Below, piece by piece: positions 3,775 to 53,270 of a DNA stretch of 53,466 nucleotides (positions within the stretch are counted from its first letter, which is position 1; each line of letters begins with the position of its first letter). The position numbers were made by a program, and so were the translations under genes. Under the pieces are notes generated by a model. It searched no databases and was not told the DNA's origin. It saw only the letters and a program-made list of their open reading frames with translations. This DNA is from Thermoanaerobaculia bacterium (GTDB lineage: Bacteria > Acidobacteriota > Thermoanaerobaculia > UBA5066). Where the stretch lies: contig JAJVIN010000055.1 in the NCBI GenBank assembly GCA_022071945.1, positions 1 through 53,466 on the forward strand, given 5' to 3'.

Positions 3775-3833
3775 CTCTCAGATCTGAGGAATCGCGCATT
3801 CCAGTTTTCTCACATTAGAGAGGCGCATATCCG
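3775..3833. promoter_or_regulatory. Paired palindromic enhancer site (UAS-a)
   Basis: Two imperfect palindromes of the CTCTC-N-GAGAG type: 3775-3790 (CTCTCAGATCTGAGGA) and 3816-3833 (TTTCTCACATTAGAGAGG). Their centres are 42 bp apart, four helical turns. They lie about 98 bp upstream of the -24 element at 3931. The same architecture recurs at 33703, 36988, 47095 and 50143. Confidence 0.55.
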
Positions 3834-3928
3834 GAGGGCGGCTTCTGTTCGCATCCGCTGCCCTGTTGACCCGTGATTCCGAGTGGGGCGGCCGCGCCCC
3901 TGATGAGTCACGCCCCGGCATGTCTGGA

Positions 3929-3946
3929 CTGGCAAGCCGATTGCTA
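3929..3946 (+). promoter_or_regulatory. Sigma-54 promoter facing the vWA gene
   Basis: CTGGCAAGCCGATTGCTA matches the sigma-54 -24/-12 consensus closely: GG at 3931-3932, ten bases, GC at 3943-3944, with TGGCA and TTGCT intact. Transcription should start near 3956 and run toward 4149. Confidence 0.65.
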
Positions 3947-4072
3947 GACCACACGTGGAACCGTTCTCACATTCACAGCAAAGCGGGGCCCCGCGGTCTG
4001 GTGTTCACGCGACTCTGCCGCGCCCCTTTTCAAGGATCTTCAGTCACTTGGCGCCGTTGACCTTTCCCTCCC

Positions 4073-4113
4073 AGACCCTCCCCCCAGCCAGAGCCAGGGA
4101 GGGTCTCTTTTTT
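4073..4113 (+). terminator. Intrinsic terminator inside the vWA leader
   Basis: A perfect 10-bp stem (4073-4082 with 4097-4106, 14-base loop) is followed by six T at 4108-4113. No gene on the plus strand ends upstream of it. It sits about 155 bases after the predicted sigma-54 start and 35 bases before the vWA ATG. It therefore either attenuates vWA expression or ends a small RNA. Confidence 0.7.
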
Positions 4114-4148
4114 GAGCCCCCGGGTCTGCGGGTATCGGAGCTGAGCTG

Positions 4149-5570
4149 ATGCGTTTCAGGGTGAGACCTTTCACGGCGCTCCTCTCCCTGGGGATCCTCG
4201 GCACTGCCGGCGCCGGGTTCGGGAGCGGTGTGCCCCCCGGCGAGAGGCCACCCGGAGCCGGCAAGAGAGTGGTCTTCATCCTCGACGCGTCGGGCAGCAT
4301 GAAGGCCAAGCTGGGAGCGGGGACCCGGATCACAGCCGCCAAGGACGTCATGATGCAGCTCATCCGGGATCTCCCGTCCGCAGTCGAGTTCGGGGTCCTG
4401 GCCTACGGGCACAGGCGGAAGGACGACTGCGCCGACATCGAGGAGATCATCCCGCTTGGCCAGCCGTCGAAGGACGCGGCCATCCTGGCTGTCCAGAAGC
4501 TCTCCGCGGCCGGGAAAACACCCATCACGGCCTCCGTCAGGCTGGCGGCACAGAGGCTCGGGCCGGGCGGCGGCCCCGGGGCGATCATCCTCGTTTCCGA
4601 CGGAGAGGAAACCTGCGCGGACGATCCCTGTGGCGCGGTGCGGGACCTGAAAAGGGAGGGCATCGCCTTCACCCTCCACGCCGTCGGATTCGGCGTGACC
4701 CAGAAGGAAGCCAGGCAGCTCGAGTGCCTCGCGAAAGAGGGGGGAGGCACCTACACGAGCGCCGCCAACGCGAAGGAACTCCTCGACGCTCTCGAGAAGG
4801 TCCAGAGAGCCGAAGTCGCCACGGGGGAACTCTCCCTCACGGCCAGAAAACAGGGGAAGCAGTTGCAGGCGGAGGTCGTCATCGCGTCGGCGGGGGGCTC
4901 GCGCGTGGAGGGCGGGTGGACGAGCGCCCGTGATCCGCGCGTCTTTCACCTCCTGCCCGGAACGTACGACGTCACGGTGACCGACACGTCGGTTTCGCCG
5001 AAGACGGCACGGACCGCCAAGGGACTCATCGTCAAGGCAGGCGAACGTACGGAGAAAGACTTCGAGTTCTCGCTCGAGGGTCAGCTCGCCCTCTCGGCGT
5101 TCAAGAACGGCCAGCGGATCCGCGCCGAGTTCGCGGTCTTCAAGCTGCCCGAAAAGACGCGGGTCGACAGCGGGTGGCTCTCGACGAGCGGCCCTGTGAG
5201 CGTGCGGCTCCTCGCCGGGCCGTACGAGGCCGCGGCCGTGGACACCCGAGTGGCGACGAGGTCCGAGCGGCGCGCGGTCTTCGAGGTCAAGTCCGGCGAG
5301 ACCACCACGGTCGACCTCGCCGGGTTCCTCGAGGCCGAAGTCGAGCTCTCGGCGATGCGGGATGGGAAGCGCATCCGTTGCGAGTTCTCCCTGCGGCGCC
5401 GGGAAGGCGGAGGGAGGGACAGCGGCTGGCTCCCGACCGAAGGTCCTCGAAAGTGCTTCGTCCTGCCCGGTACCTACGACCTTGACGTGCGGTGCGGGGA
5501 TGAAAAGAAGAAGCAGGAAGGGATCACGCTCGTCCACGGAGACAGAAAGACGTTGGAGGTCCAGTTCTGA
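4149..5570 (+). CDS. Secreted von Willebrand factor A domain protein with three C-terminal repeats
   Basis: A 473-aa exported protein. A signal peptide (FTALLSLGILGTAGAG) precedes a vWA domain at about 38-220. Its metal-binding MIDAS motif is complete in its first element (DASGS, residues 46-50), followed by a later Thr and by VSDGEETC. vWA domains bind protein partners through a divalent metal. Residues about 224-473 form three related units of about 80 residues, each opening like GELSLTARKQGKQLQAE / GQLALSAFKNGQRIRAE / AEVELSAMRDGKRIRCE and closing with LLPGTYDV-like strands. GGAG lies 8 bases before the ATG. Sigma-54 signals and a terminator lie upstream, so expression is probably conditional. 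The partner is unknown. Confidence 0.85.
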   Translation: MRFRVRPFTALLSLGILGTAGAGFGSGVPPGERPPGAGKRVVFILDASGSMKAKLGAGTRITAAKDVMMQLIRDLPSAVEFGVLAYGHRRKDDCADIEEIIPLGQPSKDAAILAVQKLSAAGKTPITASVRLAAQRLGPGGGPGAIILVSDGEETCADDPCGAVRDLKREGIAFTLHAVGFGVTQKEARQLECLAKEGGGTYTSAANAKELLDALEKVQRAEVATGELSLTARKQGKQLQAEVVIASAGGSRVEGGWTSARDPRVFHLLPGTYDVTVTDTSVSPKTARTAKGLIVKAGERTEKDFEFSLEGQLALSAFKNGQRIRAEFAVFKLPEKTRVDSGWLSTSGPVSVRLLAGPYEAAAVDTRVATRSERRAVFEVKSGETTTVDLAGFLEAEVELSAMRDGKRIRCEFSLRRREGGGRDSGWLPTEGPRKCFVLPGTYDLDVRCGDEKKKQEGITLVHGDRKTLEVQF

Positions 5571-5665
5571 GGGTCCATGGGGCGCCCATCCCTGAAAGCC
5601 TTCGTCTTCTCCTGGCCACACTGCTCGTTCTCTCCGCCCGTGGCGCCGGGGATGCGAACCGGATC

Positions 5666-6145
5666 GTGAGTAAGAAACCCTCCCAGCAGAAGCGGGGCTG
5701 GCAGCCCGGTACAGTGCTCCTCGAGGGCTACCACCCCTCCGCCGCGGCGCTCGACAGCGAGCACGTCCATGCGGTCGTGGCCCCCTTCACGAAGAGCGCC
5801 GCCGAGGGTGTCAGCGGAATCGCCGCCATCGACCGGAAGACCGCGACGGCGCGCTATCTTCTCCGCGGTACTGCCGAGCTTCTCCCCAACCACATGGCAG
5901 GGGTGCACCTCGGACGCGGCGCCCTCTCCCGGCTGAACGGCTTGACCGTGATGAAAGCCGCGGTCTCGACAGGTGAGACGCGCGCGATCTCTCCGTTCGG
6001 ATCCCTGGCAGGGGCCTTCTGGGGAATGACGCCCCACACCTTCAACCACAACGACGAGAGGAAGCGCCTGGCCATCGACACTGTCAGCGGCACGGCCGCC
6101 GGGGAGGGTGGCGAGTGGCTCCAGATTCTCGAACCGCGCGCGTAA
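5666..6145 (+). CDS. Hypothetical protein, probably exported
   Basis: Not recognised. From the GTG at 5666 the product is 159 aa with no clear domain. The in-frame codons just upstream read LRLLLATLLVLSARGAG, a good signal-peptide core, and stay open back to a CTG at 5567 that overlaps the vWA stop codon. The true start is therefore probably non-ATG and translationally coupled to the vWA gene, giving an exported protein of about 190 aa. Glycine and histidine are scattered and there are no cysteines. It could be an internally shortened beta-propeller. It precedes the cytochrome gene by about 50 bases. Confidence 0.5.
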   Translation: MSKKPSQQKRGWQPGTVLLEGYHPSAAALDSEHVHAVVAPFTKSAAEGVSGIAAIDRKTATARYLLRGTAELLPNHMAGVHLGRGALSRLNGLTVMKAAVSTGETRAISPFGSLAGAFWGMTPHTFNHNDERKRLAIDTVSGTAAGEGGEWLQILEPRA

Positions 6146-6196
6146 TCGGGCGGGATGGCCCGAAAACCGGCAGAGCCGCCTTACCGGAGGTTCCTG

Positions 6197-7162
6197 ATGA
6201 GCAGAGGATGGAAATGGGTATCGGGTCTTGCGCTGATGGCCATCATTGGCGTGGCCGGTATCGCAGTCCGCTTCTACGTCCTGGCGCCGCGCCACCGGCC
6301 TGCGCAACAGGTCGAGGCGCCAAGAACGCCCGAGGCCATCGCGCGTGGCCGCTACCTTGCCCATCACGTCGCGGCCTGCATGAGTTGCCACAGCCAGGTG
6401 CAAGAGGAACTGCCGGGCGACCCAGTGGCCATCGGCCGTTTCGGAAGCGGCCGCGACTTTGGCGCGGACGCCGGGTTTCCGGGACACGTTCGCGCCAGCA
6501 ACCTCACTGCGGCCCCGCAGGGCTTGGGGAACTGGAGCGACGGAGATATCCTGCGCGCCGTTCGCGAGGGGATCTCGCGCGATGGCCGTCCGTTGTTCCC
6601 GTTGATGCCGTATCAGGCCTACGCGCGGCAGCTGTCCGACGCCGACGCTCTGGCAATCGTGGCCTATCTGCGCACGCTCCCGCCGCTGACGGACACCGTG
6701 GCTCCGAGCGCCATCGGCTTTCCCGCCTCGATGTTCATTCGCCTCTCGCCGGCCCCCGTGGAGAGCGGGGCCAGTCCGCTGCCCGCCGAACCCCTCGCGC
6801 GAGGACGGCGCCTTCTCGACCTGATGAGCTGCGGCGACTGCCACAATTCCTTCGACGGGAGGCGTCAACCAATCCCGGGCCGCGAGATGTCCGGAGGGGC
6901 TGAGTTCAATGTGCCAGGGAAGGGGAAGGTCCACGCGAGTAATCTGACTCCGGACAAAGAGACCGGGCTCGGCACGGCCACGGAGGAGGACCTCGCGCGC
7001 GCCCTGCGATCCGGCACCGGCCGCGACGGCCGGATTCTCCACGCCATGCCCTGGACGGCCTACGCCGGGCTCTGCGATGAGGATCTGCGCGCCGTGATCA
7101 CCGCGCTGCGCGCCCTGCCAGCGGTGCGTAACTATGTACCAAAGAGAAGCTTCGAGCGCTGA
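6197..7162 (+). CDS. Membrane-anchored diheme cytochrome c
   Basis: A 321-aa protein with one N-terminal membrane anchor (VSGLALMAIIGVAGIAVRFYV) and two class I cytochrome c domains. The heme-binding motifs are CMSCH and CGDCH, about 155 residues apart. Each is followed by a plausible methionine ligand segment (FPLMPYQAY; HAMPWTAY). Both domains carry the sequence ASNLT followed by P or A, as in alcohol- and sugar-dehydrogenase cytochrome subunits and related electron carriers. The ATG at 6197 was preferred to 6155 because GGAGG lies six bases before it. It would act in the periplasm passing electrons to a terminal oxidase or another acceptor. No dehydrogenase gene is adjacent, so its donor is unknown. 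Confidence 0.88.
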   Translation: MSRGWKWVSGLALMAIIGVAGIAVRFYVLAPRHRPAQQVEAPRTPEAIARGRYLAHHVAACMSCHSQVQEELPGDPVAIGRFGSGRDFGADAGFPGHVRASNLTAAPQGLGNWSDGDILRAVREGISRDGRPLFPLMPYQAYARQLSDADALAIVAYLRTLPPLTDTVAPSAIGFPASMFIRLSPAPVESGASPLPAEPLARGRRLLDLMSCGDCHNSFDGRRQPIPGREMSGGAEFNVPGKGKVHASNLTPDKETGLGTATEEDLARALRSGTGRDGRILHAMPWTAYAGLCDEDLRAVITALRALPAVRNYVPKRSFER

Positions 7163-7165
7163 GGG

Positions 7166-7729
7166 ATGGACACGAGGCGCGCCCGCCCCTCATGGGTTGA
7201 GATCAATGGCGGTCGAGACCCCTCTCGCGAGAAACCCGGAGGCCCACGGCGGGGGAACGGAGACCTCTTGGCCGGCCTGACGGGACAGATGCTGGGCCGC
7301 TACCGGCTCGAATCCCTCCTCGGACGAGGCGGGATGGCCGCGGTCTACAGGGCTTTCGACGAGGAGCTGCGCCGCGCGGTCGCGATCAAGGTCATCCTCG
7401 GCGAGGCCCCCGCGGACGGGTCCTTCCGTCAGTTCCAGGACATCCCGGAGATTGGTGGAACGATCCCGGACTGGGCTCTTGCTCTGTCCTATCTCGACCC
7501 GAGGAGGGAAGCTCGAGACCTTCTCGCGCGGGCGGAACGGAGGGGAGATCCGGGCGTCGAGCAAGGCCGGAGGATTCTGGCGAGACTCGAGGGCGACGAG
7601 CCAGGGGTCCCTGCCCTCGATTCCAAATCAGACGGCGGAGTTGCACATGTGCCTTCCGTACCCCGAGGCGAGAGCCTCCGGGAACTTCGCGACCGGCTGC
7701 GAGGGATGAAGCCCATGCCCCCTCGATAG
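7166..7729 (+). pseudogene. Internally deleted Ser/Thr protein kinase
   Basis: Residues from about 42 read [20 protein letters not shown] and then AVAIKVI: the glycine loop and the VAIK lysine of a bacterial Ser/Thr kinase. About 13 residues later the catalytic core stops. There is no HRD, DFG or APE motif. The frame continues into a tail ([26 protein letters not shown]) like the TPR-type repeats often found C-terminal to such kinases. The simplest reading is a large in-frame deletion joining kinase subdomain II to the tail. It begins four bases after the cytochrome stop; an alternative TTG start at 7268 has GGAG upstream. It cannot phosphorylate. A protein could still be made. Confidence 0.75.
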
Positions 7730-7906
7730 CTTCCCGTGACCAGCCTGCTTCACATCCAGTCCGGGCAACGAGGACTCTTCGCCGTCCTGCTCACCACTAC
7801 CATGGGATTTCCTGTCTTACACCGACTGGCAGGGAGGGCAACTCGGGCCCTTTCTGTGGTGAAATACCCCCCGAAATCCTTCGTCCATTCTCAAGGGAGG
7901 TGGGTC

Positions 7907-8317: not shown

Positions 8318-8328
8318 GGGAATCGCTG

Positions 8329-10787
<2,459 letters not shown>

Positions 10788-10791
<4 letters not shown>

Positions 10792-12017: not shown

Positions 12018-12031
12018 TCATCGGAAGCCTC

Positions 12032-12062
12032 GCACGTGGGCTCGCTCCGCTCGCCCACATGC
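12032..12062. terminator. Hairpin between convergent genes
   Basis: Arms 12032-12041 and 12053-12062 pair over ten bases with one C-A mismatch, around an 11-base loop. It follows the kinase stop by 15 bases and precedes the end of the nifJ remnant on the other strand. There is no T-tract, so it may be a bidirectional barrier or a dispersed palindromic repeat. Confidence 0.4.
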
Positions 12063-12520: not shown

Positions 12521-12531
12521 AAGAGCAACTC

Positions 12532-32619: not shown

Positions 32620-33432
32620 TCAGGTCCCGAGATAGGGCCGGCCATCGGAGAGGACCGTCAGCACACCGATCTGCAGGGTGCTCAGATCGGCCTTGACCGA
32701 GGGGAGCGTGAACTCGCACCAACTCGACTCCTCGATGAAGGCCTTCGCGCCGTTCGGCAGGTTGAAACAGATCTCCATCTTCGAGCCCACGGAGACGAGC
32801 AGGGCGTCGACGCCCCTCGTGTACAGGCTCACGCTGGCGCCATCCCAGTTCGGACAGGGCGGGTCGGGATAGACCTCGTGGTAGTTCGTGGTCTTCGGGA
32901 AGGGCGATAGCCCGGCTCCGGCCCCGGCACCACCCACCGCCATCGCGTAGATGTACTCCCACATGACGTCCAGGTCGCGAACGTAGACATTCCCGAGCGT
33001 CGCGGAGTATCCGGCCTTCAACCCAGCCACATCTCCCGAGCTGATGGCGACCCTCAGGTTCTTCCCCCCGGCGCGGGCCGGCTTGAAGATCCTCGACTGG
33101 ACATTGCTCGACCACGCACTTTGCGAGATGTTCTTTGGCAGGTTGAGAGTCTCGTACTTGAGATTGGCCTGGCCGTACGTGTCGACGGTGAGATCCAGCG
33201 TTCCACGGATCTTGCTTGTTCTGAAGTCCGCGCGAAGGTGCTTGTCCCCCACCAGCGTGATCCTCGAAAGCGGGAATGTGTCGCCCCGGTACGCCCCCAT
33301 GATGAGCGAGTACGACTTCAACTCGATGAGACTCCCTACCTTGCCTGGATCCGGGGAGGGGCTGTCGGTGATCCTGATTCGGAGGATGTGGTCGTCGTTG
33401 AAAACCCACTCACCGTTTGGAAAGAAGAACAC
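32620..33432 (-). CDS. Hypothetical protein, first gene of the sigma-54 operon
   Basis: 270 aa, not recognised. I chose the GTG at 33432 because AAGGAGG lies four bases before it; the open frame extends to a GTG at 33468 without a ribosome site. There is no signal peptide. The sequence is mostly beta (WVFNDDHILRIRITD, YSLIMGAYRGDTFPLSRITL, LTVDTYGQANLKYETL), with a glycine-rich turn (VGGAGAGAGL) near residue 170 and two cysteines late. Beta-rich content and a lack of export signal would suit a structural or effector protein moved by a dedicated apparatus. This is speculative. A six-base hairpin overlaps its stop codon (32607-32621). Confidence 0.6.
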   Translation of the reverse strand: MFFFPNGEWVFNDDHILRIRITDSPSPDPGKVGSLIELKSYSLIMGAYRGDTFPLSRITLVGDKHLRADFRTSKIRGTLDLTVDTYGQANLKYETLNLPKNISQSAWSSNVQSRIFKPARAGGKNLRVAISSGDVAGLKAGYSATLGNVYVRDLDVMWEYIYAMAVGGAGAGAGLSPFPKTTNYHEVYPDPPCPNWDGASVSLYTRGVDALLVSVGSKMEICFNLPNGAKAFIEESSWCEFTLPSVKADLSTLQIGVLTVLSDGRPYLGT

Positions 33433-33622: not shown

Positions 33623-33640
33623 AGCAAATCAGCTGCCAAA
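33623..33640 (-). promoter_or_regulatory. Sigma-54 promoter of the four-gene operon
   Basis: Read on the minus strand: TTTGGCAGCTGATTTGCTG, with GG (plus 33636-33637), ten bases, GC (33624-33625). TGGCA and TTGCT match the consensus. Predicted start near 33612, giving a leader of about 180 bases before the GTG at 33432. Confidence 0.65.
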
Positions 33641-33702: not shown

Positions 33703-33751
33703 CTCTCGAAACTGAGAAATGGCCGGCGGTTCGGCTCTTGAAAACGAGAGC
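33703..33751. promoter_or_regulatory. Paired palindromic enhancer site (UAS-c)
   Basis: Palindromes CTCTCGAAACTGAGAA (33703-33718) and GCTCTTGAAAACGAGAGC (33734-33751), centres 32 bp apart, lie 66 bp upstream of the -24 element. They are close in sequence and spacing to the pairs at 36988, 47095 and 50143. Confidence 0.65.
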
Positions 33752-35533: not shown

Positions 35534-36832
35534 TCAGGAGATCGTGGAGAGTTGTGTGAGGCCGCTTTCGCCCGGAGCCGAGGCGCTGGCGAGGGCATCG
35601 GCTCGGCTGGGTGCCGCCCCCTGAACTCGGCACAGAGCTTGTTGGAGATCGTGGTCGCCGGTGATCAGGCCTCCGGCGAGCATGAAGCTCCACCCTGCCT
35701 GCCGGTCCAGGCGCTTGAAACTCAGGTTGTAGACCTGCTGTCCCTCTCGAGGCGGCACGCGGCTGGCGGCGAGAATGAGGGCGGGTGCGCCGTTCGCCTC
35801 GAGAACCGCATCCCCTTGCCGCAAGTCCGCCGCCCTCCTGATGCCTTCGGCACAGAGCACGGGATGGCCGCTCGTGAGCAATACGGCGGCGTCGTCCGTT
35901 TGGAGCCTGATCAGGGGTTGGGATTCGGGGCCCCTGACGACCATGGCGATCTCGTTCGCTCTTCCCGTCACAGGGTCCATGACGAACTCGCCGGGTGTCA
36001 GGTCCTCGATGGGCACATCACGTCCGTCGTGAAGCCGGATGGGTGTCCGCCCGTCGAGGCAGCCCGCGTAGACTTTATCCTCCAGCTTGTACGTCCGATT
36101 CCCCGCGGTGACAATGATCTCGGACCTGAAATCGGTCGTGCCTCCCCAGCTCCTGTTGTCGTAGGTAGGGGTGAAATCAACCTCCTGCTCCTCGGGTTGC
36201 GTTTCGTCCATCTTCACGTTGACGTTGGGAACGATGGAGAAGAACCCCATGCGGCACCGGAACGTGATGGGCGGCAAGGTCGCCGCGTACATCCAGCGCC
36301 CGTCCGGGATTCTCGAAATCCGGCCTGGCGGGCAGACGAAGCTCTGCGTCACGCACGGAATGGGCTTCCCGTCCACGGTGATCTCGAGGCGCACATCGCG
36401 GAGGCTCGCCCCCGGTCCGATCGGGCGGAAGGTGGGGGGCTCTGAGCACTCCTGCTCGCGCCGGGACGCCTGGACCTTCAGCCAGCCCGAGATCTGCTCC
36501 TGAAGGCCGTGCAGTCCCGTCCGCGTCCCGCGCTCGAGCGCCGGCCTGTTGAGCAACGCGGCCTTTTCAACCTCCCCGATGGCATCGAGGGACAGTTTCA
36601 GCCTGGCGGGGTCGGACAGGCCGGGAAACCCGGTCAGCGCCGACGAAAGGGCCGCCTCGAGCAGCGGGGCGTGCAGCACGCCGTTCGGGTGCCTGAGGGA
36701 GTCGTCCACGCGGGCCAAGAGTTGAGTCTCGAGAGGGTCGGCGCCTGGAGCAGCCTGGTTGCGGGGACGCTGCCGGATGAGGGCCTTCAGCGCGAGCCCC
36801 ACTCCGGCCAGGTTCGTCATCGAGGAAGTCAT
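35534..36832 (-). CDS. Hint-domain protein with unknown N-terminal region
   Basis: 432 aa. The C-terminal part is a Hint (hedgehog/intein) domain. Block A is CLDGRTPIRLHDGRDVPIED, with the nucleophile Cys258. A block-B-like LLTSGHPVLC carries His323. The closing block is VYNLSF ... MLAGGLITGDHD. The usual terminal His-Asn is His394-Asp395, so full splicing is unlikely, but N-S shift and cleavage before Cys258 remain possible. Residues 1-257 contain a helical start, several cysteines (C129, C160, C167, C193) and beta strands; no known domain and no signal peptide. Only about 37 residues follow the Hint core, so there is no C-terminal toxin as in classical polymorphic toxins. GGAGG precedes the ATG at 36832. 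Its own sigma-54 promoter and palindrome pair lie upstream. Confidence 0.8.
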   Translation of the reverse strand: MTSSMTNLAGVGLALKALIRQRPRNQAAPGADPLETQLLARVDDSLRHPNGVLHAPLLEAALSSALTGFPGLSDPARLKLSLDAIGEVEKAALLNRPALERGTRTGLHGLQEQISGWLKVQASRREQECSEPPTFRPIGPGASLRDVRLEITVDGKPIPCVTQSFVCPPGRISRIPDGRWMYAATLPPITFRCRMGFFSIVPNVNVKMDETQPEEQEVDFTPTYDNRSWGGTTDFRSEIIVTAGNRTYKLEDKVYAGCLDGRTPIRLHDGRDVPIEDLTPGEFVMDPVTGRANEIAMVVRGPESQPLIRLQTDDAAVLLTSGHPVLCAEGIRRAADLRQGDAVLEANGAPALILAASRVPPREGQQVYNLSFKRLDRQAGWSFMLAGGLITGDHDLQQALCRVQGAAPSRADALASASAPGESGLTQLSTIS

Positions 36833-36882: not shown

Positions 36883-36899
36883 AGCAAGTCCGTTGCCGC
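36883..36899 (-). promoter_or_regulatory. Sigma-54 promoter of the Hint-domain gene
   Basis: Minus strand GCGGCAACGGACTTGCTTG: GG (plus 36896-36897), ten bases, GC (36884-36885), with an intact TTGCTT. Predicted start near 36872, 40 bases before the ATG at 36832. Confidence 0.6.
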
Positions 36900-36987: not shown

Positions 36988-37036
36988 CTCTCGAAACAGA
37001 GAGATTCCGAGGGGTAAAACTCTCGGAAACGAGAGT
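36988..37036. promoter_or_regulatory. Paired palindromic enhancer site (UAS-d)
   Basis: CTCTCGAAACAGAGAG (36988-37003) and ACTCTCGGAAACGAGAGT (37019-37036) have centres 32 bp apart and lie 91 bp upstream of the -24 element of the Hint gene. They fall between that gene and the stop codon of the 1858-aa protein. Confidence 0.7.
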
Positions 37037-42666: not shown

Positions 42667-42705
42667 GTCGTCATTGGACGACCGGCCGTCGTCATTGGAC
42701 GACCG
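42667..42705. repeat. Tandem copy of an 18-bp palindromic unit at a stop codon
   Basis: GTCGTCATTGGACGACCG occurs at 42667-42684 and again at 42688-42705. Each contains GTCGTC-ATTG-GACGAC. The second copy encodes the last residues and stop of the third NHL protein, so one unit was duplicated just past the gene end. Confidence 0.75.
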
Positions 42706-45700
42706 ACATCGCGATGTAGCTCCCGTCGTTCGTTCCAGGTTGGACGTTGCCATCGTTGACGACTCCGTACGCGGCGAAGCGGCCGCTCCCCGATGTTCTG
42801 GTGATGCGGGCGTAGCCGTTGGGTTCTCCGGTGGGGCCGAGGATGCCGTTGATTTGCGTCCAGCGGCCTGCCTCGAGGGTCACGTCTCCCTCGCGGACCA
42901 CGGCGCCCGAGCCCCCGCTTCTCAGCTCCCAGTGGAGCGAGACTGGCCCGGTACTCGAGGCGTTGATGAGAGCGAGGTTTGCGCGGTTGGTGTCATTCTG
43001 GACGAGACCGAAGACGAGGGCTTCCTCCTCCGCCGTCTCGTCCGCCGTCAGAGCGGGGTAGAACAGCCCGTACTGAACGGCACCACTCGCGGGGGAGCCC
43101 GTGCGGGCCGCCGCGAACCCTCCGGTGATGGATCCAGCGGCGTTCTTGAATGAGATCCGGAGCGGGCCCGCGAACGAGCCGCCGGCGGCTCCGATCGCGG
43201 CCCCGCGTGTCCGAAGGTAAGCAGTTGCTCCGGGGATGATCTTCTGCTCGCCCGCGGCCAGGGTATCCGTGACGGTGGGGGACGCGTTCGGGGCGGCGTC
43301 GAGGGATTCCTGGTAGGTCATGGAGACGGTGACGCCCTCCGTTCCCGGATTCACGAGAATCAGTTCGCTCTGGTACGACGGCGTCTCGACGATGACCGGC
43401 AGCAAGAGTTCCCCGGCGGCTCTGTCCGTCTTGATTCCCTCGACGTAGGAGCCGTCGTTCGTCGCGTTGTTGTTGAAGACGGCGTAGGCCGTGAACGGGC
43501 CGGTCCCCGAGATTCGTTCGATGAGGGCGAACCCATTCGTCAGGCTGGCGAGATTCAGCACGAACGCGATCTGTTTCCATTCCCCTGGCTCGAGGGTGAC
43601 CGTCGTGACTTCCGTGAACCCGTTCGGGGACGAGGGTCTTCCGGCGGCCGGCATTCCGTTCGCCAGGGAAACCCGCAGGGTGATGGGATCGCCGGATGAG
43701 GCCATGTTCACCATCGCGAGATTCGTCCGGTCTTCACCGTTCTGGCGAAGGCCATAGAGAAGGAGACCCGAGCCGGACGCCTCCGAGACCGTCAGCCCGG
43801 GGTAGGCGAGCCCGGCGCGGCCAGGACCCGTGGGAGCGGTCGTGCGGGCGCTGGCGAACGCGGCCTCCAGGGATGACAGGCCCGAAAACGTCACCCTGAG
43901 GGCTCCGCCCTGGGGCTGCTCCGGCGGGATCTCGAGTCCCTTCTGCCTGAGGTAGGCGATCGCGTCCGGGATGACTAGTTGCCCGCCCGCCGGCAGTGTT
44001 TCCTCGACGGAACCCGTACCCGCTCCCAGGGATGCGCGGTAGGCGAGCGTCACGCTCGCGGGAATCGCCCCGCGGTTGGCAAGGACGAGTTCGGAGGCGT
44101 AGCGGGCCTCCCCACGGCCCGCGGCGTCGAGAACGATCGGGATGGTTCGGGTCAGGGTGAGGGGATTCCCTCCCGCGAAAAAGCCCACGAGGCTCACCCC
44201 GATTCCGCTGGCGTTGCTGGCTTTGAGGGTGATCTGGTAGGGGCCCGGGACGTCTGGCGTGAATGTGGCGCGCCGGGCATTCGGGTTATCGATCTGGGCG
44301 GCGGAGCCGGGCGGACGCTGTGTGACGCGCCAGTTCCATGCGGTGGCCCCTTCACCCTTGCAGTCGAGCTGGCGCGCGATTCCGATGGGTCCGCTCCGCT
44401 GGTCGATCGTTGCGGTGTCCGGGATCGAGGGTGTCAGGAGCGAGATGGCGTGAGTGCTCCACTGGGCGATGTAGCCGCGTCCTTGTGAGTCGACCGCCAG
44501 ACCCTGGGATGTCGTGATCCTGGCAAACGAGCCGGTCCCTTCCCGGGAGCCGATGAGCCCCAGCTTGCCGGCGAGGGTCGTGACGGTTCCGCTCGGGGTC
44601 ACCCGGCGGACGAGGTTGTTGAAAACCTCGCTGACCATGATGTTGCCATCTGGTTCGACGCCGATCCCGAAGACGCCCGAGAACCGGGCCGCCGAACCTT
44701 CGCCGTCAGCCCAGCCGTGCGTACCTGGCCCGCCGGCCACGGTCCTCACGACGCCGGCGGGGCTCACCGAGCGCACGGTTGTCGAGTCCGTCACCCAGAG
44801 CGTTCCCTGTCGATCCAGGGCGATTCCCACCGGGTTATCGAAGCGGGCGGCCGCGCCCGTGCCGTCCACGGAGCCCTGCAGCCCCGCCGAACCGGCCAAG
44901 GTCGTGACGGCCCCAGCCGGGGTGATCTTGCGGATCGTCTTGTTGTCGGCCTCTGTCACGTACACGTTGCCCGCGCCGTCGACCGCGAGGTTGGAGGGCC
45001 CCAGGCGGGCGTTTCCTCCCGTTCCGTCGGCGTGTCCGGGCTGTCCGGACCGGCCGGCCAGCGTGCTCAGGACGCCCGCCGGAGTCAGTTTCTTGACGGT
45101 GCTGTCGCCCCAGTCGGCGATGTAGACGTTTCCGGCGGCATCGGCCGCGACCCCGGTCGGGTGAGCGAGCTTGCTGGCGTTGCCCGGTTCTCCCGAGAAG
45201 CCGCACGAGCCAGCCATGCCCGCGATGGTCGTGCTCACGGCCTGTGGCGAGATGCTGCGGATCGTGCAGTTGTACGAATCGACGGCGAGCAGGTTGCCTT
45301 GAGTGTCGAAGTTGACTTGTTGGGGATGCCACATCTTGATGGCGAGGCCTGTTCCATCCGTGCTTCCGGCGGTATTCGGACCCGCAATAGTGGTGACGGT
45401 GCCTGTCTGGGTAACGCGCCGCAGCAGCCCATTGGCCGCGTCTGGCACGAGAAAGGCCCCTGCTCCATCGGGGGCGATGTGGGAAGGAAAGTCGAAGCGA
45501 GCGGCCGAGCCGGTCCCATCCTGGGTGCCCGGCCCGCCAGGGGCCCCCGCGATCGTGCTGACCGAGCCATCCGGAGCGATCCTCCGGATGGCGTTGCATG
45601 TCATGTCCGCGACGAGAATGTTGCCACTCGAGTCGGTGACGCCGTTTCGGGGACTCATGAAGCGAGCCGTCGCGGCGGGTCCGTCCACGCAGCCGCTCTC

Positions 45701-46465
45701 GCCCGCCTTGCCGGCGAGGGTGGTCACGACTCCGGCCAGGGTGACCCGGCGGATCGTGAAATTCCCAGTGTCGGCCAAGAGCAAGTTCCCCTGACCGTCG
45801 AACGAAAGTCCCCGGGGGAAAATCAACCGGGCCGCGCTGCCTGTTCCATCCGTGGAGCCTTTCTGGCCAGCGGAGCCCGCGAGAGTGGAGACGTCACCCT
45901 CGGGAGTGATCTTCCGTATCGTGTGATTGAGCGTGTCGGAGAGATAGATCGTGCCCTGCCCGTCGATGACGAGGCCACGATTGGGGGTATTGAAGCGTGC
46001 CGTACTCCCCTTGCCATCCAGGGAGCCGGGAACTCCGGCCAATCCCGCGAACGTGGAGACCGTGCCATCCGGGGTGATCTTGCGGATCGTGTGGTTGCCG
46101 CCGTCCAATACGAACAAGTTACCCCGGGAATCGAATGCGAGGCCGGTCGGTTGGCGGAAACGCGCTGTCTGACGAGGACCGTCCTGGCTCCCCGGTACGT
46201 CCATGCTCCCGGCCCACGTCGAAACGGTTCCGGTGGACGAGACGTGCCGGATGGCATGTCCGTACCAGTCAGCAACGAGGTACCCCCCCTTTCCGTCGGG
46301 GATGGCGACGATCGGGTAGTGGAACCGCGCGCTGGCGGAGGGGCCGTCCTCGGTGCTGTTCCCGGCCGGCGTCCCGGCCCAGTGGGTCAGGGTCTCGGCG
46401 GGTGCGAGGCCTCCCAGAAGCGTGAAGAAAGCGAATGTGACAGGCGGCAGCAGCCTACGGGCCAT
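42692..46465 (-). CDS. Third secreted NHL-repeat protein
   Basis: 1257 aa. GGAGGAAGA precedes the ATG at 46465, and a signal peptide follows (LLPPVTFAFFTLLGGLAPAE). About twelve NHL blades (IYLSDTLNHTIRK, NLFVLDGGNHTIRK, VYIADWGDSTVKK and the TLAGSAGQKGSTDGTG loops) cover residues 20-680. A PKD-like or Ig-like unit (about 690-760: GPIGIARQLDCKGEGATAWN) follows. The last 480 residues are two copies of the shared module, ending in AYGVVNDGN and TNDGSYIAMS. It overlaps the 3' end of the truncated paralog by 11 bases, so both share the sigma-54 promoter at 46947. The next gene, 54 bases downstream, may belong to the same transcript. Confidence 0.9.
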   Translation of the reverse strand: MARRLLPPVTFAFFTLLGGLAPAETLTHWAGTPAGNSTEDGPSASARFHYPIVAIPDGKGGYLVADWYGHAIRHVSSTGTVSTWAGSMDVPGSQDGPRQTARFRQPTGLAFDSRGNLFVLDGGNHTIRKITPDGTVSTFAGLAGVPGSLDGKGSTARFNTPNRGLVIDGQGTIYLSDTLNHTIRKITPEGDVSTLAGSAGQKGSTDGTGSAARLIFPRGLSFDGQGNLLLADTGNFTIRRVTLAGVVTTLAGKAGESGCVDGPAATARFMSPRNGVTDSSGNILVADMTCNAIRRIAPDGSVSTIAGAPGGPGTQDGTGSAARFDFPSHIAPDGAGAFLVPDAANGLLRRVTQTGTVTTIAGPNTAGSTDGTGLAIKMWHPQQVNFDTQGNLLAVDSYNCTIRSISPQAVSTTIAGMAGSCGFSGEPGNASKLAHPTGVAADAAGNVYIADWGDSTVKKLTPAGVLSTLAGRSGQPGHADGTGGNARLGPSNLAVDGAGNVYVTEADNKTIRKITPAGAVTTLAGSAGLQGSVDGTGAAARFDNPVGIALDRQGTLWVTDSTTVRSVSPAGVVRTVAGGPGTHGWADGEGSAARFSGVFGIGVEPDGNIMVSEVFNNLVRRVTPSGTVTTLAGKLGLIGSREGTGSFARITTSQGLAVDSQGRGYIAQWSTHAISLLTPSIPDTATIDQRSGPIGIARQLDCKGEGATAWNWRVTQRPPGSAAQIDNPNARRATFTPDVPGPYQITLKASNASGIGVSLVGFFAGGNPLTLTRTIPIVLDAAGRGEARYASELVLANRGAIPASVTLAYRASLGAGTGSVEETLPAGGQLVIPDAIAYLRQKGLEIPPEQPQGGALRVTFSGLSSLEAAFASARTTAPTGPGRAGLAYPGLTVSEASGSGLLLYGLRQNGEDRTNLAMVNMASSGDPITLRVSLANGMPAAGRPSSPNGFTEVTTVTLEPGEWKQIAFVLNLASLTNGFALIERISGTGPFTAYAVFNNNATNDGSYVEGIKTDRAAGELLLPVIVETPSYQSELILVNPGTEGVTVSMTYQESLDAAPNASPTVTDTLAAGEQKIIPGATAYLRTRGAAIGAAGGSFAGPLRISFKNAAGSITGGFAAARTGSPASGAVQYGLFYPALTADETAEEEALVFGLVQNDTNRANLALINASSTGPVSLHWELRSGGSGAVVREGDVTLEAGRWTQINGILGPTGEPNGYARITRTSGSGRFAAYGVVNDGNVQPGTNDGSYIAMSVVQ

Positions 46466-46886: not shown

Positions 46887-46946
46887 GCCTTCCTTCGGTC
46901 CGCCTCCGCGAGGACGTTCGTTTTTTTCGAGCTTTCCGTTTCCGTT

Positions 46947-46964
46947 CGCACGTTCCTTGCCATC
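46947..46964 (-). promoter_or_regulatory. Sigma-54 promoter upstream of the truncated paralog and third NHL gene
   Basis: Minus strand ATGGCAAGGAACGTGCGAAC: GG (plus 46960-46961), ten bases, GC (46948-46949). The -24 box is TGGCA; the -12 box is GTGC instead of TTGC. It is nearly identical to the box at 49999. Confidence 0.55.
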
Positions 46965-47094
46965 GCTTGATGGCCCGAGGGGTGCCGCGGGTCCGGCTTC
47001 AGGATTGCCCCGGGAATGCCGCGCAGCCAGCCGCCTGGATCGAGTTCACGGTGGCCTGTACAACCGATCGGGGCCTACAAGGCGGTGACCCCGG

Positions 47095-47143
47095 CTCGCG
47101 TTTTCGATAGTGCCGGGAGGACTCGAGTCTCATTATTGAGAGC
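47095..47143. promoter_or_regulatory. Paired palindromic enhancer site (UAS-f)
   Basis: CTCGCGTTTTCGATAG (47095-47110, degenerate) and AGTCTCATTATTGAGAGC (47126-47143), centres 32 bp apart, lie 134 bp upstream of the -24 element at 46961. The segment aligns with the one at 50143-50190. Confidence 0.6.
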
Positions 47144-49998: not shown

Positions 49999-50016
49999 TA
50001 GCACGTTGCCTGCCAT
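49999..50016 (-). promoter_or_regulatory. Orphan sigma-54 promoter
   Basis: Minus strand ATGGCAGGCAACGTGCTAAT: GG (plus 50013-50014), ten bases, GC (50001-50002). It closely resembles the 46947 promoter. No credible minus-strand gene lies downstream of it. Confidence 0.5.
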
Positions 50017-50142
50017 GGCGGGAGGCCCCATGCGTGGCGCGGGATCCACCCCTGACCGGCACCGTGCCGCGAGCACAGCGGCCCGAATCGAGTTCGCCTC
50101 CGCGAGGGGGGCTGATCGCGAGCCGCATGAATTCGTGGTTGG

Positions 50143-50190
50143 CTCTCGTTTTCGAGAGTCGAAGGGGCTGAAACTCTCGTAATTGAGAGT
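50143..50190. promoter_or_regulatory. Paired palindromic enhancer site (UAS-e)
   Basis: CTCTCGTTTTCGAGAG (50143-50158, perfect arms) and ACTCTCGTAATTGAGAGT (50173-50190, perfect arms), centres 31 bp apart. This is the best-preserved pair in the window and is 129 bp from the -24 element of the promoter at 49999. Confidence 0.75.
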
Positions 50191-50343
50191 GAGCCTCCCG
50201 GCTTTGCCAGCCTGCGACAGCCTGCGGGACGGACAGCTGGACCGAGCTTGAAAGCCATCATGTCCGGTTGATAGTCTCCCTTACCTGATGGGAGGACCAG
50301 AACGTCACGATCATCGCTTCGACACGAGGTCCGGGAGTGAGGG

Positions 50344-51699
50344 GTGACGGCGATGTCGGTTCGTAAAGCAGTGTCCCGAGCCTGGCGGCACGACTTGCAG
50401 GTCTCGGCCGCGGCCGCGGCGTTGACCGTGATCCTCTCGTTCCTGGTCTTCGCCGGAATCGAGGAGTCTTTCGTGCGGCGGGAGGAGTCGAGGCGGCTTC
50501 TTCATTACGTCCGGGGAATCTCGACGAGCATGATGGCGGCGCTGGCCGTTGGGCTCACCGGCTACCGGCAGCACCGGGTTCGCGAGCGAACCTTGAGAGA
50601 GGAAGCCGAGCGCGCGGAGCGCGACGCGCGGGATGTGCGCGCGCTTCTCGGGTTCATCGTGGATGCGACGCCGGCGGCACTCGTCGTCCTGGACACCGAG
50701 TACCGTGTCGTGAGGACCAACAGGGTGGCCGAGGAGGTTCACGGAGCGGGACTTACGGGAAAGCCCTGCCGGGAAGCGGTCGGAGCCTGCTCGACCCTTT
50801 GCAGCGACTGCCCCGCGATGAGGAGCTTTCAGACGGGTGAGCCGTGCACGGGCCTGCCGCCTCATACCGATCCACGGACCGGAGAGGTGCTCTCCGTGGA
50901 GAGCTATCCTCTCGACCTGCCGGACGGGCAGCGCCACGTCCTGCTCGTCGAGCAGATCGTCACCGAACAGAAGAAGCTCCAGGCGAGGCTGCTCCATCAA
51001 GAAAAGATGGCGGCGTTCGGGCTTCTGGCGGCGGGAATCGCCCATGATCTCGGCAACCCTCTCGCGTCGATCGACGCGCAGGTGCAACTCCTGGACAGCA
51101 AGAACCTCGATGAGGGGGCGGCGTCGATCCTGCGGGAAGTCCGCCGGGAACTCGGGCGGCTTGGCCGGACCCTCCGAGAACTCGTCGACTTTGCCCGGCG
51201 CCGCCGTGACGAGGCGGCCCTCGTCTCGGTGCAGGCCGTGGCGGAGGACGCTCTGCGGATCCTGAGGCACGATCCCCGGATGAGGAACGTGACCGTGGCC
51301 TCGAGCTTCGATCCCGAGACGCCGCCCGTCCTGGTGGTGGAAGATCACCTGATGCAAGTTGTCTTCAATCTTCTCCTCAATGCCGTGGACGCGATGCCCG
51401 AGGGCGGCTCGCTTCGTCTCGAGCTTTCGCCTGCCGGTTCTTCCGTCGCCCTGCGTGTGCACGACACCGGCTGCGGCATGGACCGCTCCGTCCTGAACAG
51501 GTGCTTCGAGCCGCTCTTCACGACGAAGCCACCCGGAAGGGGGACGGGGCTCGGACTGAGTATCTCGCGAGACATCATCCGGGAAGGGGGCGGGCGGCTG
51601 GAACTCCACAGCTCTCCGGGGCATGGGACCACGGCCGTCGTCTCCCTTCCGGCGGCGAGTCCGGCCGTGGGAGCCGTGGGGCAAGGACGGGCGGCGTGA
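50344..51699 (+). CDS. PAS-domain histidine kinase, NtrB-like
   Basis: About 451 aa. Two N-terminal transmembrane helices (AAAALTVILSFLVFAGIEES; GISTSMMAALAVGLTGY) anchor a PAS domain (about 98-205) with a cysteine-rich insert (CREAVGACSTLCSDCPAM) that may hold a redox or metal centre. HisKA follows with H234 in AAGIAHDLGNPLASI, then a HATPase with NLLLNAVDAM, DTGCGM and GRGTGLGLSI. The kinase should phosphorylate the response regulator whose gene overlaps its stop codon. Start is GTG 50344 or ATG 50353. The CxxxxxCSTLCxxC cluster is like that of other sigma-54-linked sensors and suggests redox sensing, as an inference. Confidence 0.9.
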   Translation: MTAMSVRKAVSRAWRHDLQVSAAAAALTVILSFLVFAGIEESFVRREESRRLLHYVRGISTSMMAALAVGLTGYRQHRVRERTLREEAERAERDARDVRALLGFIVDATPAALVVLDTEYRVVRTNRVAEEVHGAGLTGKPCREAVGACSTLCSDCPAMRSFQTGEPCTGLPPHTDPRTGEVLSVESYPLDLPDGQRHVLLVEQIVTEQKKLQARLLHQEKMAAFGLLAAGIAHDLGNPLASIDAQVQLLDSKNLDEGAASILREVRRELGRLGRTLRELVDFARRRRDEAALVSVQAVAEDALRILRHDPRMRNVTVASSFDPETPPVLVVEDHLMQVVFNLLLNAVDAMPEGGSLRLELSPAGSSVALRVHDTGCGMDRSVLNRCFEPLFTTKPPGRGTGLGLSISRDIIREGGGRLELHSSPGHGTTAVVSLPAASPAVGAVGQGRAA

Positions 51700-53078
51700 G
51701 CGAAGCGAACGGCAAGCTGGGACGCCTCCTCGTCGCCGAGGACGAGCGGGCGCAGCGTGAGGCCTTGGTCCAGTTCCTTTCTGCCCGGGGTCATGAGGTC
51801 ACGGGCGTTGCCACCGGCGAGCAGGCGATGGAGCGGCTGGCCGCGGAGACCTTCAGTCTCCTGATCACCGACCTCAGGCTCCCGGGGATGGACGGGCTCG
51901 CCGTCGTCAGGCGCGCGCGGGAAATCGACGAGGAGATGGGCGTCCTACTGATAACGGCCTTTGCCTCGGTCGAGTCCGCGATCGAGGCGCTCCGCGCCGG
52001 GGCCCACGACTACCTCCTCAAGCCCCTGATCTTCGAGGACGTCGCGCGAAAGGTCGCCAACCTTCTCGCGCACCGCGAACTCGTTCGCGAGAACGCCCGG
52101 CTCCGGCGAATCCTGAACGAGCAGGACCCCGGTCCCGAGATCGTCGCGGTCTCGGCCGCGATGCAGGACGTCGTCTCGTGGGTGAGGCGGGCCGCGGCTT
52201 CCCGGGCCACGGTCTTGATCACGGGCGAGACCGGCACGGGAAAGGAAGTCGTCGCTCGCGCCATCCACCATCTCGGGCCCTGCCGGGAGGAGCCCTTCCT
52301 TGCCGTGAGCCTGGCGGCCGTGCCGGAGACGCTCGTGGAGAGCGAGCTTTTCGGACACGAGAAGGGGGCCTTCACCGGGGCGGAACGCCGGCGCGAAGGT
52401 CTCCTGCGCGCGGCGGGTCGAGGCACGGTCTTTCTCGACGAGATCGCCGAACTCTCGCTTCCGGCCCAGGCCAAGCTCCTGCGCGCCATCGAGGCCCGGG
52501 AGGTCCAGCCTCTGGGGAGCGACCGCAGCATCCCGTTCGAGGCCCGGCTGGTGGCGGCGACGCATCGCAGGCTCCTCGACCGCGTCGAGGCCGGGACCTT
52601 TCGCGAGGACCTCTACTACCGGCTCGCCGTCATCCAGATCCACGTCCCGCCTCTGCGGGAGAGGCCAGATGACGTCCCGGGGCTCGTCCAGCGGCTCCTC
52701 TCCCGGCAGGCGCAGCGCAGCGCCGTCCCCCTGCCTTCCGTCACCGCCGCCGCCATGAGGGCGCTGTGCCAGTACCCCTGGAGAGGGAACGTCCGCGAGC
52801 TGGCGAACGTGCTCGACCGCGCCCTCATCCTCGCCGACGAGGGCCGGATCGACGTGGAACAGATCCCGGCCGATGTCAGGAGCGCCGCGGGACCTGATCT
52901 CGACCTCGAACAGGCCATCGACCGCTTCGAGCGCGGGTACATCCTGATGGCCTTGCGCCTCTCCGGGGGGAACCGCGAGAAAGCGGCCGAAAGCCTCGGG
53001 ATCTCGCCCGCGACTCTCTACCGCCGGATCGAACGCCTGGGCCTGAAAGGGGCCGAGTCGGGCCGCTCGAAGCCCTGA
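51696..53078 (+). CDS. NtrC-family sigma-54-dependent response regulator
   Basis: About 460 aa. The receiver (about 10-122) has LLVAEDE and the phosphoacceptor D59 in ITDLRLPGMDG. The AAA+ domain (about 145-370) has Walker A GETGTGKE, the sigma-54-contacting loop ESELFGHEKGAFTGA, Walker B GTVFLDEI, and the arginine-finger region FREDLYYRL. A Fis-type helix-turn-helix ends the protein (NREKAAESLGISPATLYRRI). Such proteins bind paired sites 80-150 bp upstream and open sigma-54 promoters. The GTG at 51696 overlaps the kinase stop. It is the natural candidate for the CTCTC/GAGAG pairs found across the window. Confidence 0.95.
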   Translation: MSEANGKLGRLLVAEDERAQREALVQFLSARGHEVTGVATGEQAMERLAAETFSLLITDLRLPGMDGLAVVRRAREIDEEMGVLLITAFASVESAIEALRAGAHDYLLKPLIFEDVARKVANLLAHRELVRENARLRRILNEQDPGPEIVAVSAAMQDVVSWVRRAAASRATVLITGETGTGKEVVARAIHHLGPCREEPFLAVSLAAVPETLVESELFGHEKGAFTGAERRREGLLRAAGRGTVFLDEIAELSLPAQAKLLRAIEAREVQPLGSDRSIPFEARLVAATHRRLLDRVEAGTFREDLYYRLAVIQIHVPPLRERPDDVPGLVQRLLSRQAQRSAVPLPSVTAAAMRALCQYPWRGNVRELANVLDRALILADEGRIDVEQIPADVRSAAGPDLDLEQAIDRFERGYILMALRLSGGNREKAAESLGISPATLYRRIERLGLKGAESGRSKP

Positions 53079-53139
53079 GCCCGTGGAGACCTTCGACTCG
53101 GGCCCAGGGCTCCGCGACTCGGGGGTGTCTTCGCGCCGT

Positions 53140-53159
53140 CCTGCCCGGATCCCGGCAGG
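53140..53159 (+). terminator. Weak hairpin after the regulator gene
   Basis: CCTGCC at 53140-53145 pairs with GGCAGG at 53154-53159 around an eight-base loop. There is no T-tract, so termination is uncertain. Confidence 0.25.
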
Positions 53160-53172
53160 TTCCATCGCTGGC

Positions 53173-53211
53173 GTGAGAAACCTCACACCGGGTTTCTCTC
53201 ACGTCTGAGAG
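53173..53211. promoter_or_regulatory. Palindromic enhancer site (UAS-g)
   Basis: CTCTCACGTCTGAGAG (53196-53211) is a perfect-arm palindrome of the same type. The second element, GTGAGAAACCTCAC (53173-53186), is centred 24 bp away, unlike the 31-32 bp of other pairs. It lies about 44 bp upstream of the -24 element at 53255. Confidence 0.5.
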
Positions 53212-53252
53212 GACGCGGACCCTTCGCACCGCCACCAGAGCGGATTTGACCT

Positions 53253-53270
53253 CCGGCACGCCGATTGCGC
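53253..53270 (+). promoter_or_regulatory. Sigma-54 promoter of the right-edge gene
   Basis: CCGGCACGCCGATTGCGC: GG 53255-53256, ten bases, GC 53267-53268, with GGCAC and TTGC intact. Predicted start near 53280, 39 bases before the GTG. Confidence 0.6.

What the first reader, a model, noticed from the sequence alone, without database searches (positions are those of the whole stretch)
3775..53270. A local sigma-54 regulon marked by paired CTCTC/GAGAG palindromes
Pairs at 3775-3833, 33703-33751, 36988-37036, 47095-47143 and 50143-50190 (a less regular one at 53173-53211) share the palindrome CTCTCR-N4-YGAGAG. Centre spacing is 31-32 bp, 42 bp at the first pair: three or four helical turns. Each lies 44-134 bp upstream of a GG-N10-GC box (3929, 33623, 36883, 46947, 49999, 53253). 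The window also encodes an NtrC-type activator with GAFTGA and its kinase. A common activator and a defined set of targets (vWA protein, four unknown genes, Hint protein, NHL operon, right-edge gene) form a coherent system that, as far as I know, is not described.
Basis: partly seen in the sequence, partly recalled or inferred. Interest (0 to 1): 0.85.

Follow-up and report, generated by a model that had tools for sequence, protein, structure and literature searches.

The report
Paired enhancer sites marking nitrate-respiration regulon
A bacterial two-component switch appears to turn on nitrate respiration through a matched pair of short palindromic DNA sites, and in this genome the same paired sites also stand before about a dozen other promoters, many of them for large secreted proteins of unknown function.

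Summary
The paired palindromes are real, and the local NtrC-type activator is very probably what reads them. Six pairs lie in the window (the first is spaced 32 bp, not 42) and seven more on three other contigs of the same genome. Twelve of 13 have an outward sigma-54 box, against 16.7% of random intergenic points. The comparative evidence is decisive: among the 80 activator homologues returned by one scan, a 31/32-bp pair occurs at 5 of 5 loci with at least 59% identity and 0 of 75 others, and the pair-bearing activators in a 33-row tree form one clade (100/100). In six of seven relatives with an orthologue the pair precedes a cytochrome c-narG operon; in the seventh, benzoyl-CoA reductase genes. 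This genome's narG starts at base 893 of contig C32, behind the 3' part of that cytochrome c gene, so the window's right-edge gene is very probably its 5' part. The 'less regular' sixth pair is then the conserved one. The signal, direct binding and the extra targets' functions are inferred or unknown.

The parts
3775..3822 (+). paired palindrome 1 (sites 3775 and 3807, spacing 32)
   Evidence: duplicated copy at C3:245028
3930..3945 (+). sigma-54 box, 1 mismatch
4149..5570 (+). target: vWA protein with an apparent signal sequence
   Evidence: Pfam VWA 2.4e-12; gene call from my script
33703..33750 (-). paired palindrome 2 (spacing 32)
   Evidence: duplicated copy at C3:234012
33623..33638 (-). 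sigma-54 box, 2 mismatches
32620..33432 (-). target: unknown 270-aa protein, followed leftwards by further unknown genes to about 29995
   Evidence: no Pfam or NCBIfam match
36988..37035 (-). paired palindrome 3 (spacing 32)
36883..36898 (-). sigma-54 box, 3 mismatches
35534..36832 (-). target: weakly Hint-like protein
   Evidence: Pfam Vint 2.2e-4, below its cut-off
47095..47142 (-). paired palindrome 4 (spacing 32)
46947..46962 (-). sigma-54 box, 3 mismatches; the predicted gene start lies some 370-480 bp further on
42692..46465 (-). target: NHL-repeat beta-propeller protein with an apparent signal sequence
50143..50189 (-). paired palindrome 5 (two perfect sites, spacing 31), best-scoring pair of the genome; ends 182 bp before the predicted kinase start
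50000..50015 (-). sigma-54 box, 2 mismatches; my gene finder predicts no leftward gene after it
50371..51699 (+). sensor histidine kinase: hydrophobic N-terminal segment, PAS_4 with a conserved C-x(n)-C-x2-C-P, HisKA, HATPase
51696..53078 (+). NtrC-type activator: receiver, sigma-54 AAA+ domain with GAFTGA, Fis-type HTH
53164..53211 (+). paired palindrome 6 (one weak, one perfect site, spacing 32): counterpart of the conserved nar-promoter pair
   Evidence: in R2's training set, R2 E 0.0026
53254..53269 (+). sigma-54 box, 2 mismatches
53271..53466 (+). start of the right-edge gene, very probably the 5' part of the cytochrome c gene that heads the nar operon (rest of that gene and narG at the start of contig C32)
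   Evidence: inferred from gene order, the fragment itself has no significant match

Best explanation
The kinase (50371-51699) and the NtrC-type activator (51696-53078) form a two-component system that switches on sigma-54 promoters. The phosphorylated activator binds, as dimers, two palindromes CTCTCR-N4-YGAGAG set 31-32 bp apart (three helical turns, hence on one face of the DNA), assembles into its AAA+ oligomer and, by looping to RNA polymerase-sigma-54 waiting 42-132 bp away, opens the promoter. The conserved target is a cytochrome c-nar operon for nitrate respiration that begins at the window's right edge. In this genome the same paired enhancer also stands before a ric (iron-sulfur repair) gene and some ten further promoters, among them those of a vWA protein, a weakly Hint-like protein and large beta-propeller proteins. 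Shown here: the pairs, the boxes, their co-occurrence with one activator clade, the nar linkage, and an rpoN gene. Inferred: direct binding, phosphorylation, looping, and induction by low oxygen, redox state or a nitrogen oxide.
For: (1) Pairing at 31/32 bp and boxes far above background (12 of 13 pairs have an outward box with at most 3 mismatches, 16.7% of random intergenic points do; 10 of 13 against 9.5% at 2 mismatches; counting related promoters once, 9 of 10, p 8.6e-7). (2) Of the 80 best loci kept from 494 homologues, 5 of 5 at 59% identity or more have a 31/32-bp pair and 0 of 75 at 50% or less do; those 75 (1.18 Mb) hold one site pair at any spacing of 20-60 bp. The pair-bearing activators are one clade, 100/100 (33 rows, i.e. 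30 of the 80 loci, chosen by me, plus three). (3) Model R1, built only from 11 own-genome pairs and run on 20 genomes, has as its two best places outside the own genome G005:C34:125113 (E 0.0018) and G009:C57:16728 (E 0.13): the only two of 19 relatives with an orthologue, and both just before cytochrome c-narG. (4) The motif follows the activator rather than the target: at L103 it precedes benzoyl-CoA reductase genes; G007 has cytochrome c-narG, no orthologue found, and neither pair nor box (at most 3 mismatches) before the gene. (5) narG of this genome is at C32:893-4471, behind the 3' part of a cytochrome c gene with which C32 begins. (6) One rpoN gene over the cut-off. (7) No other GAFTGA-type protein in the 16 own-genome stretches searched.
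Against: No binding or expression data. The search scored 74 activator homologues in this genome, its limit, and another could bind the extra sites. The pair before ric has no box with at most 3 mismatches. The 50143 pair, the strongest, faces a box with no predicted gene after it, and no rightward box lies before the kinase. At L099 the nar-facing box has 4 mismatches and the better one faces the kinase. Site 53164 has 4 mismatches, and this pair did not reach E 1 with R1. G009's R1 hit (E 0.13) is barely above the noise (next 0.26) and persuades by its place. The window's last gene fragment has no significant match of its own to the cytochrome c proteins.
Confidence: 0.86

Rival explanations
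1. The nar promoter is controlled by the window's activator, but the extra pairs in this genome are read by a different, related NtrC-type activator that shares the recognition sequence.
For: At least 74 homologues scored in this genome; the extra targets have no obvious link to nitrate respiration.
Against: Among the own-genome homologues listed, none exceeds 44% identity (the list is cut), while homologues at 50% or less never carry the pair at their own loci (0 of 75). No other GAFTGA-type protein lies in the own-genome stretches searched.
Confidence: 0.1
2. The extra pairs are passive leftovers of segmental duplication and act on no gene; only the nar promoter is functional.
For: Window stretches recur on C3 and C32 at 83-95% identity; two pairs and one box region lie inside them. 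The ric pair lacks a box and the 50143 box lacks a gene.
Against: Most pairs lie outside the duplicated stretches found; both palindromes and the spacing are kept while flanks differ; boxes with at most 3 mismatches stand by 9 of 10 promoter groups.
Confidence: 0.08
3. The palindromes are sites of a repressor or other DNA-binding protein and their nearness to sigma-54 boxes is incidental.
For: Palindromes alone do not identify the binder.
Against: Occurrence follows one clade of a sigma-54 activator across three labelled phyla and across different target genes, with boxes beside the pair at each of those five loci.
Confidence: 0.03

Closest known systems
NtrBC and tandem NtrC enhancers (NtrC-type enhancer-binding proteins)
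   Same: Receiver-AAA+-Fis HTH activator with GAFTGA; a tandem of activator sites upstream of a sigma-54 promoter is the minimal bacterial enhancer (PMC4740811, passages). That the glnA sites are also about 32 bp apart is recalled; my search for it was read as a listing only.
   Different: 365.8 bits against NCBIfam ntrC, cut-off 558.6; other palindrome; linked to nitrate respiration. In Pseudomonas stutzeri an ntrC mutant lost about 70% of its use of nitrate as electron acceptor (PMC8443478, passages), so an NtrC effect on nitrate respiration is not unheard of.
NreABC of staphylococci
   Same: Two-component control of narGHJI; NreB senses oxygen by a [4Fe-4S] cluster, in a PAS domain by the title of a cited paper, and NreC binds palindromes before nar (PMC8139620, passages). 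The kinase here has a PAS_4 domain with three conserved cysteines.
   Different: Activator is NtrC-type with sigma-54 promoters; NreC is LuxR-type (recalled). Three, not four, conserved cysteines; no cluster shown.
NarXL / NarQP
   Same: Two-component control of nitrate respiration.
   Different: Pfam finds no nitrate-sensor or HAMP domain in this kinase; the activator has a Fis-type HTH and sigma-54 AAA+ domain.
NorR
   Same: Sigma-54 activator of a nitrogen-oxide pathway with tandem palindromes (PMC1274295, passages).
   Different: NorR sites are GT-N7-AC (same passages); here CTCTCR-N4-YGAGAG. 297.2 bits against the NCBIfam norR cut-off of 476; this activator has a receiver domain.
BamVW of Geobacter metallireducens
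   Same: Two-component system reported to act on anaerobic aromatic degradation (PMC11497800, passages), as the L103 system may.
   Different: Homology to BamVW was not tested; no nar link known to me.

Membership tests
NtrC-type two-component sigma-54 activators | receiver + sigma-54 AAA+ domain + Fis-type HTH | tested here: met
   PF00072 3.1e-25, PF00158 2.2e-63, PF02954 2.6e-12
NtrC-type two-component sigma-54 activators | GAFTGA loop | tested here: met
   GAFTGA at 52365
NtrC-type two-component sigma-54 activators | sigma-54 in the genome and -24/-12 boxes at targets | tested here: met
   one rpoN over cut-off; boxes at 12 of 13 pairs
NtrC-type two-component sigma-54 activators | direct binding to the paired sites and ATP-dependent activation | not testable with these tools
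   needs purified protein
NtrC proper (NR-I) | NCBIfam TIGR01818 cut-off 558.6 bits | tested here: not met
   365.8 bits
NorR | NCBIfam NF003451 cut-off 476 bits | tested here: not met
   297.2 bits
ZraR / AtoC | NCBIfam cut-offs 760 / 714 bits | tested here: not met
   357.8 / 374.3 bits
NarXL / NarQP | nitrate-sensor and HAMP domains in the kinase; LuxR-type HTH in the regulator (both recalled, the former also in passages of PMC8199190) | tested here: not met
   Pfam: only PAS_4, HisKA, HATPase_c in the kinase; Fis-type HTH_8 in the activator
NreB-type oxygen sensor | cysteine-ligated Fe-S cluster in the PAS domain | tested here: inconclusive
   three cysteines conserved in 6 of 6 kinases aligned, of 8 known; cluster not testable
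Respiratory nitrate reductase (core target) | NarG equivalog TIGR01580, cut-off 1084 bits | tested here: met
   own genome C32 1469.9, G005 1479.7, G009 1501.2 bits; L099-L102 by tblastn only, 75-77% identity

The most novel reading that the evidence does not exclude
A sigma-54 two-component module for nitrate respiration (kinase, activator, paired CTCTCR-N4-YGAGAG enhancer, cytochrome c, nar operon) has passed between phyla, was re-aimed at anaerobic aromatic degradation in one lineage, and in this genome became a multi-operon regulator by gaining copies of its enhancer in front of large secreted proteins, tying an extracellular programme to anaerobic nitrate respiration.
Probability: 0.5. 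Interest if true: 0.72.

Novelty: new variant of a known kind. Interest (0 to 1): 0.62.

Why it matters
The passages I read of three papers on control of nitrate respiration or nitrogen-oxide metabolism name FNR-like proteins, NarXL/NarQP, NreABC, NorR and NsrR; an NtrC-type two-component system acting on nar through sigma-54 did not appear in them. Sigma-54 and nitrate reductases are not strangers, though: a promoter survey predicts sigma-54 control for a protein group of which 42% are nitrate reductases, enriched in Proteobacteria and Bacilli (PMC12316311, passages), and NtrC affects nitrate respiration in P. stutzeri (PMC8443478, passages). If right, this gives mostly uncultured Acidobacteriota, Planctomycetota and a Deltaproteobacterium a predicted nar switch with an exact DNA site, so that the regulon can be called from sequence alone. 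It also gives a clear case of regulon growth: one strong site in each of seven relatives, about thirteen here.

Tried and rejected
Single perfect palindromes at C1:331884, C9:112742, C11:9225 and C33:52286 have no partner at 29-34 bp with a mismatch sum of at most 4 and are taken as chance and left out of the 13 (the C33 place still scored E 0.0036 with R1 and 0.055 with R2). A 42-bp spacing at the first pair: rejected. A rightward sigma-54 box for the kinase: none found; a sigma-70-like hexamer pair at 50248-50275 was seen. A known small RNA near 50000: Rfam has no match there. Looser pairs in L104, L105, L106 and L108 (mismatch sum up to 6, spacing 30-33): none. Pfam and NCBIfam on the unknown targets gave little. 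Not every window gene was scanned. narJ, narI, narK and moaA are named by my reading of the sequences, not by a family search. Paper searches for a sigma-54 two-component regulator of nar (plus 55 on NreB, no hit) listed no such system, but only the top of the ranking was listed (15 of 35; 10 of 16; 8 of 12; 12 of 99). No structure prediction was run.
Full report
What was checked. The sixth, 'less regular' pair has a perfect site at 53196 and a poor one at 53164 in the same 32-bp register. Each pair has a sigma-54 box pointing away from it, 42-132 bp off. Single palindromes with up to 2 mismatches are not clearly in excess in the window (23 against 16.9 expected). The pairing is: in 313,818 bases of own-genome stretches, site pairs with a mismatch sum of at most 3 fall at spacing 32 eight times, at 31 twice and at five other spacings once each.

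The rest of the genome. The genome has 6.17 Mb in 69 contigs; the window is contig C41. Pattern searches show further pairs at C3:206823, C3:223323, C3:234012, C3:245028, C32:26402 and C32:31141; with five window pairs they make model R1, which finds them again. A second model, R2 (19 pairs), adds C33:56774, which was not in its training set (E 0.0026). That makes 13 pairs on four contigs. Twelve lie in intergenic stretches listed by my own codon-usage gene finder; the pair at 53164 was dropped from that listing by an edge filter but lies between the activator's stop (53078) and the next gene. Twelve of 13 have a box with at most 3 mismatches 60-240 bp away in the outward direction, against 16.7% of random intergenic points. 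With related promoters counted once it is 9 of 10 (p 8.6e-7). The exception is the pair before ric. Four perfect single sites elsewhere have no partner.

The activator and its orthologues. The activator has receiver, sigma-54 AAA+ and Fis-type HTH domains and is the only GAFTGA-type protein in the 16 own-genome stretches searched. Of 19 relatives only G009 (77%) and G005 (65%) have an orthologue; the other homologues listed are at 46% or less. A search of 396 genomes of the phylum adds two, G037 and G051 (four candidates per genome were scored). A scan of public genomes kept the best 80 of 494 homologous loci, with organism names. At the five loci with 59-67% identity (L099 and L103 labelled Planctomycetota, L100 and L101 Acidobacteriota, L102 Deltaproteobacteria) there is a pair at 31 or 32 bp; at the other 75 (50% or less) there is none. 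A tree of 33 activators (30 of the 80 loci, chosen by me, plus three) puts the eight pair-bearing ones in one clade with 100/100 support. As G037, labelled Acidobacteriota, is 'same phylum', the window is inferred to be from Acidobacteriota.

What the pair controls. In G009 the order is kinase, activator, pair, box, cytochrome c, narG. In G005 pair and box precede cytochrome c, narG and the rest of the operon, with kinase and activator further on. The two cytochrome c genes match Pfam, and NarG is over the NCBIfam cut-off in G005, G009 and the own genome. L099-L102 have cytochrome c and narG/narH by tblastn, either after the activator or divergent from the kinase. At L103 the genes after pair and box encode benzoyl-CoA reductase and its pathway: subunits C, B and D and the oah hydratase are over their NCBIfam cut-offs, subunit A, had and dch under theirs. 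narG is found in 4 of 20 relatives: the own genome, G005, G009 and, in two pieces, G007. G007 has no orthologue found (77% complete), and its short contig shows neither a pair nor a box with at most 3 mismatches before cytochrome c. In the own genome narG is at C32:893-4471. The window's last 196 bases hold the start of a gene, and C32 begins inside a cytochrome c gene 78% identical to residues 88-345 of the G009 protein. So C41 and C32 are almost certainly neighbours. This rests on gene order and on where the two pieces break; the window fragment has no significant match of its own and the contig ends share no exact overlap over 10 bases.

The expanded set. In each of the seven relatives with an orthologue R2 finds one strong pair (E 5.2e-4 or better) at the nar or bcr promoter; the eight control genomes have nothing better than E 0.38. 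Since R2 was built from those pairs, R1, built on own-genome pairs alone, is the fairer test: its two best foreign places are the G005 and G009 nar promoters (E 0.0018 and 0.13; next 0.26). In this genome the other pairs precede a vWA protein, an unknown 270-aa protein and its neighbours, a weakly Hint-like protein, an NHL protein, a ric gene (over the NCBIfam cut-off) followed by a protein with four CxxCH motifs, and large PKD- or BNR/sortilin-type proteins. The C33 pair lies between a flavoprotein-like gene and a large secreted protein, with a box on either side. The 270-aa protein has a 95% paralogue here, two matches at 30-34% in G005 and none in the other 18 relatives. Stretches of the window recur on C3 and C32 at 83-95% identity; they carry pairs 1 and 2 whole and the box region of promoter 4, so duplication explains part of the growth.

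Mechanism. Two palindromes three turns apart before a -24/-12 promoter is the expected layout for an NtrC-type enhancer; PMC4740811 (passages) calls a tandem of activator sites upstream of a sigma-54 promoter the minimal bacterial enhancer. The kinase has a hydrophobic N-terminal segment and a PAS_4 domain with three cysteines conserved in 6 of 6 kinases aligned (those of L100 and L101 were not aligned). NreB, which controls nar in staphylococci, senses oxygen through an Fe-S cluster (PMC8139620, passages), so an oxygen or redox signal is my first guess (about 0.4); nitrate or a nitrogen oxide is the alternative. One rpoN gene is present.

Comparison with what is known. The activator is an NtrC-type protein but under the NCBIfam cut-offs of NtrC, NorR, ZraR and AtoC. 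Nitrate-respiration papers read in passages name other regulators; a sigma-54 promoter survey predicts control of some nitrate reductases in Proteobacteria and Bacilli (PMC12316311) and an ntrC mutant of P. stutzeri respires nitrate poorly (PMC8443478). The system is therefore a new variant of a known kind, not a new kind.

What stays open. The strongest pair (50143) faces a box with no predicted gene after it and ends 182 bp before the kinase without a rightward box; it may serve autoregulation or a small transcript. The ric pair lacks a box. The function of the secreted targets, the signal and direct binding are unknown.

Noticed in passing
window 3554-21045, 32813-34863, 46341-46965: Long window stretches recur on contigs C3 and C32 of the same genome at 83-95% identity (e.g. 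15020-21045 at 94.5% on C32): repeated segmental duplication.
   Followed up: partly
L103:9978-17337: In a Planctomycetota MAG the same activator and paired site precede a benzoyl-CoA reductase (bcr-type) operon with oah, had and dch genes.
   Followed up: partly
window 49-126: Rfam group II intron match just over the gathering score (41 against 40 bits) at the left edge.
   Followed up: no
window 50000-50190: The best-scoring pair of the genome faces a sigma-54 box with no predicted gene downstream; possibly a small transcript.
   Followed up: partly
window 50371-51699: Kinase PAS_4 domain with C-x(n)-C-x2-C-P conserved in the six kinases aligned, a candidate metal or redox site.
   Followed up: partly
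L027:6824-12392: A pair stands before ric, a protein with four CxxCH motifs and an FG-GAP/TPR protein, but without a recognisable sigma-54 box.
   Followed up: partly
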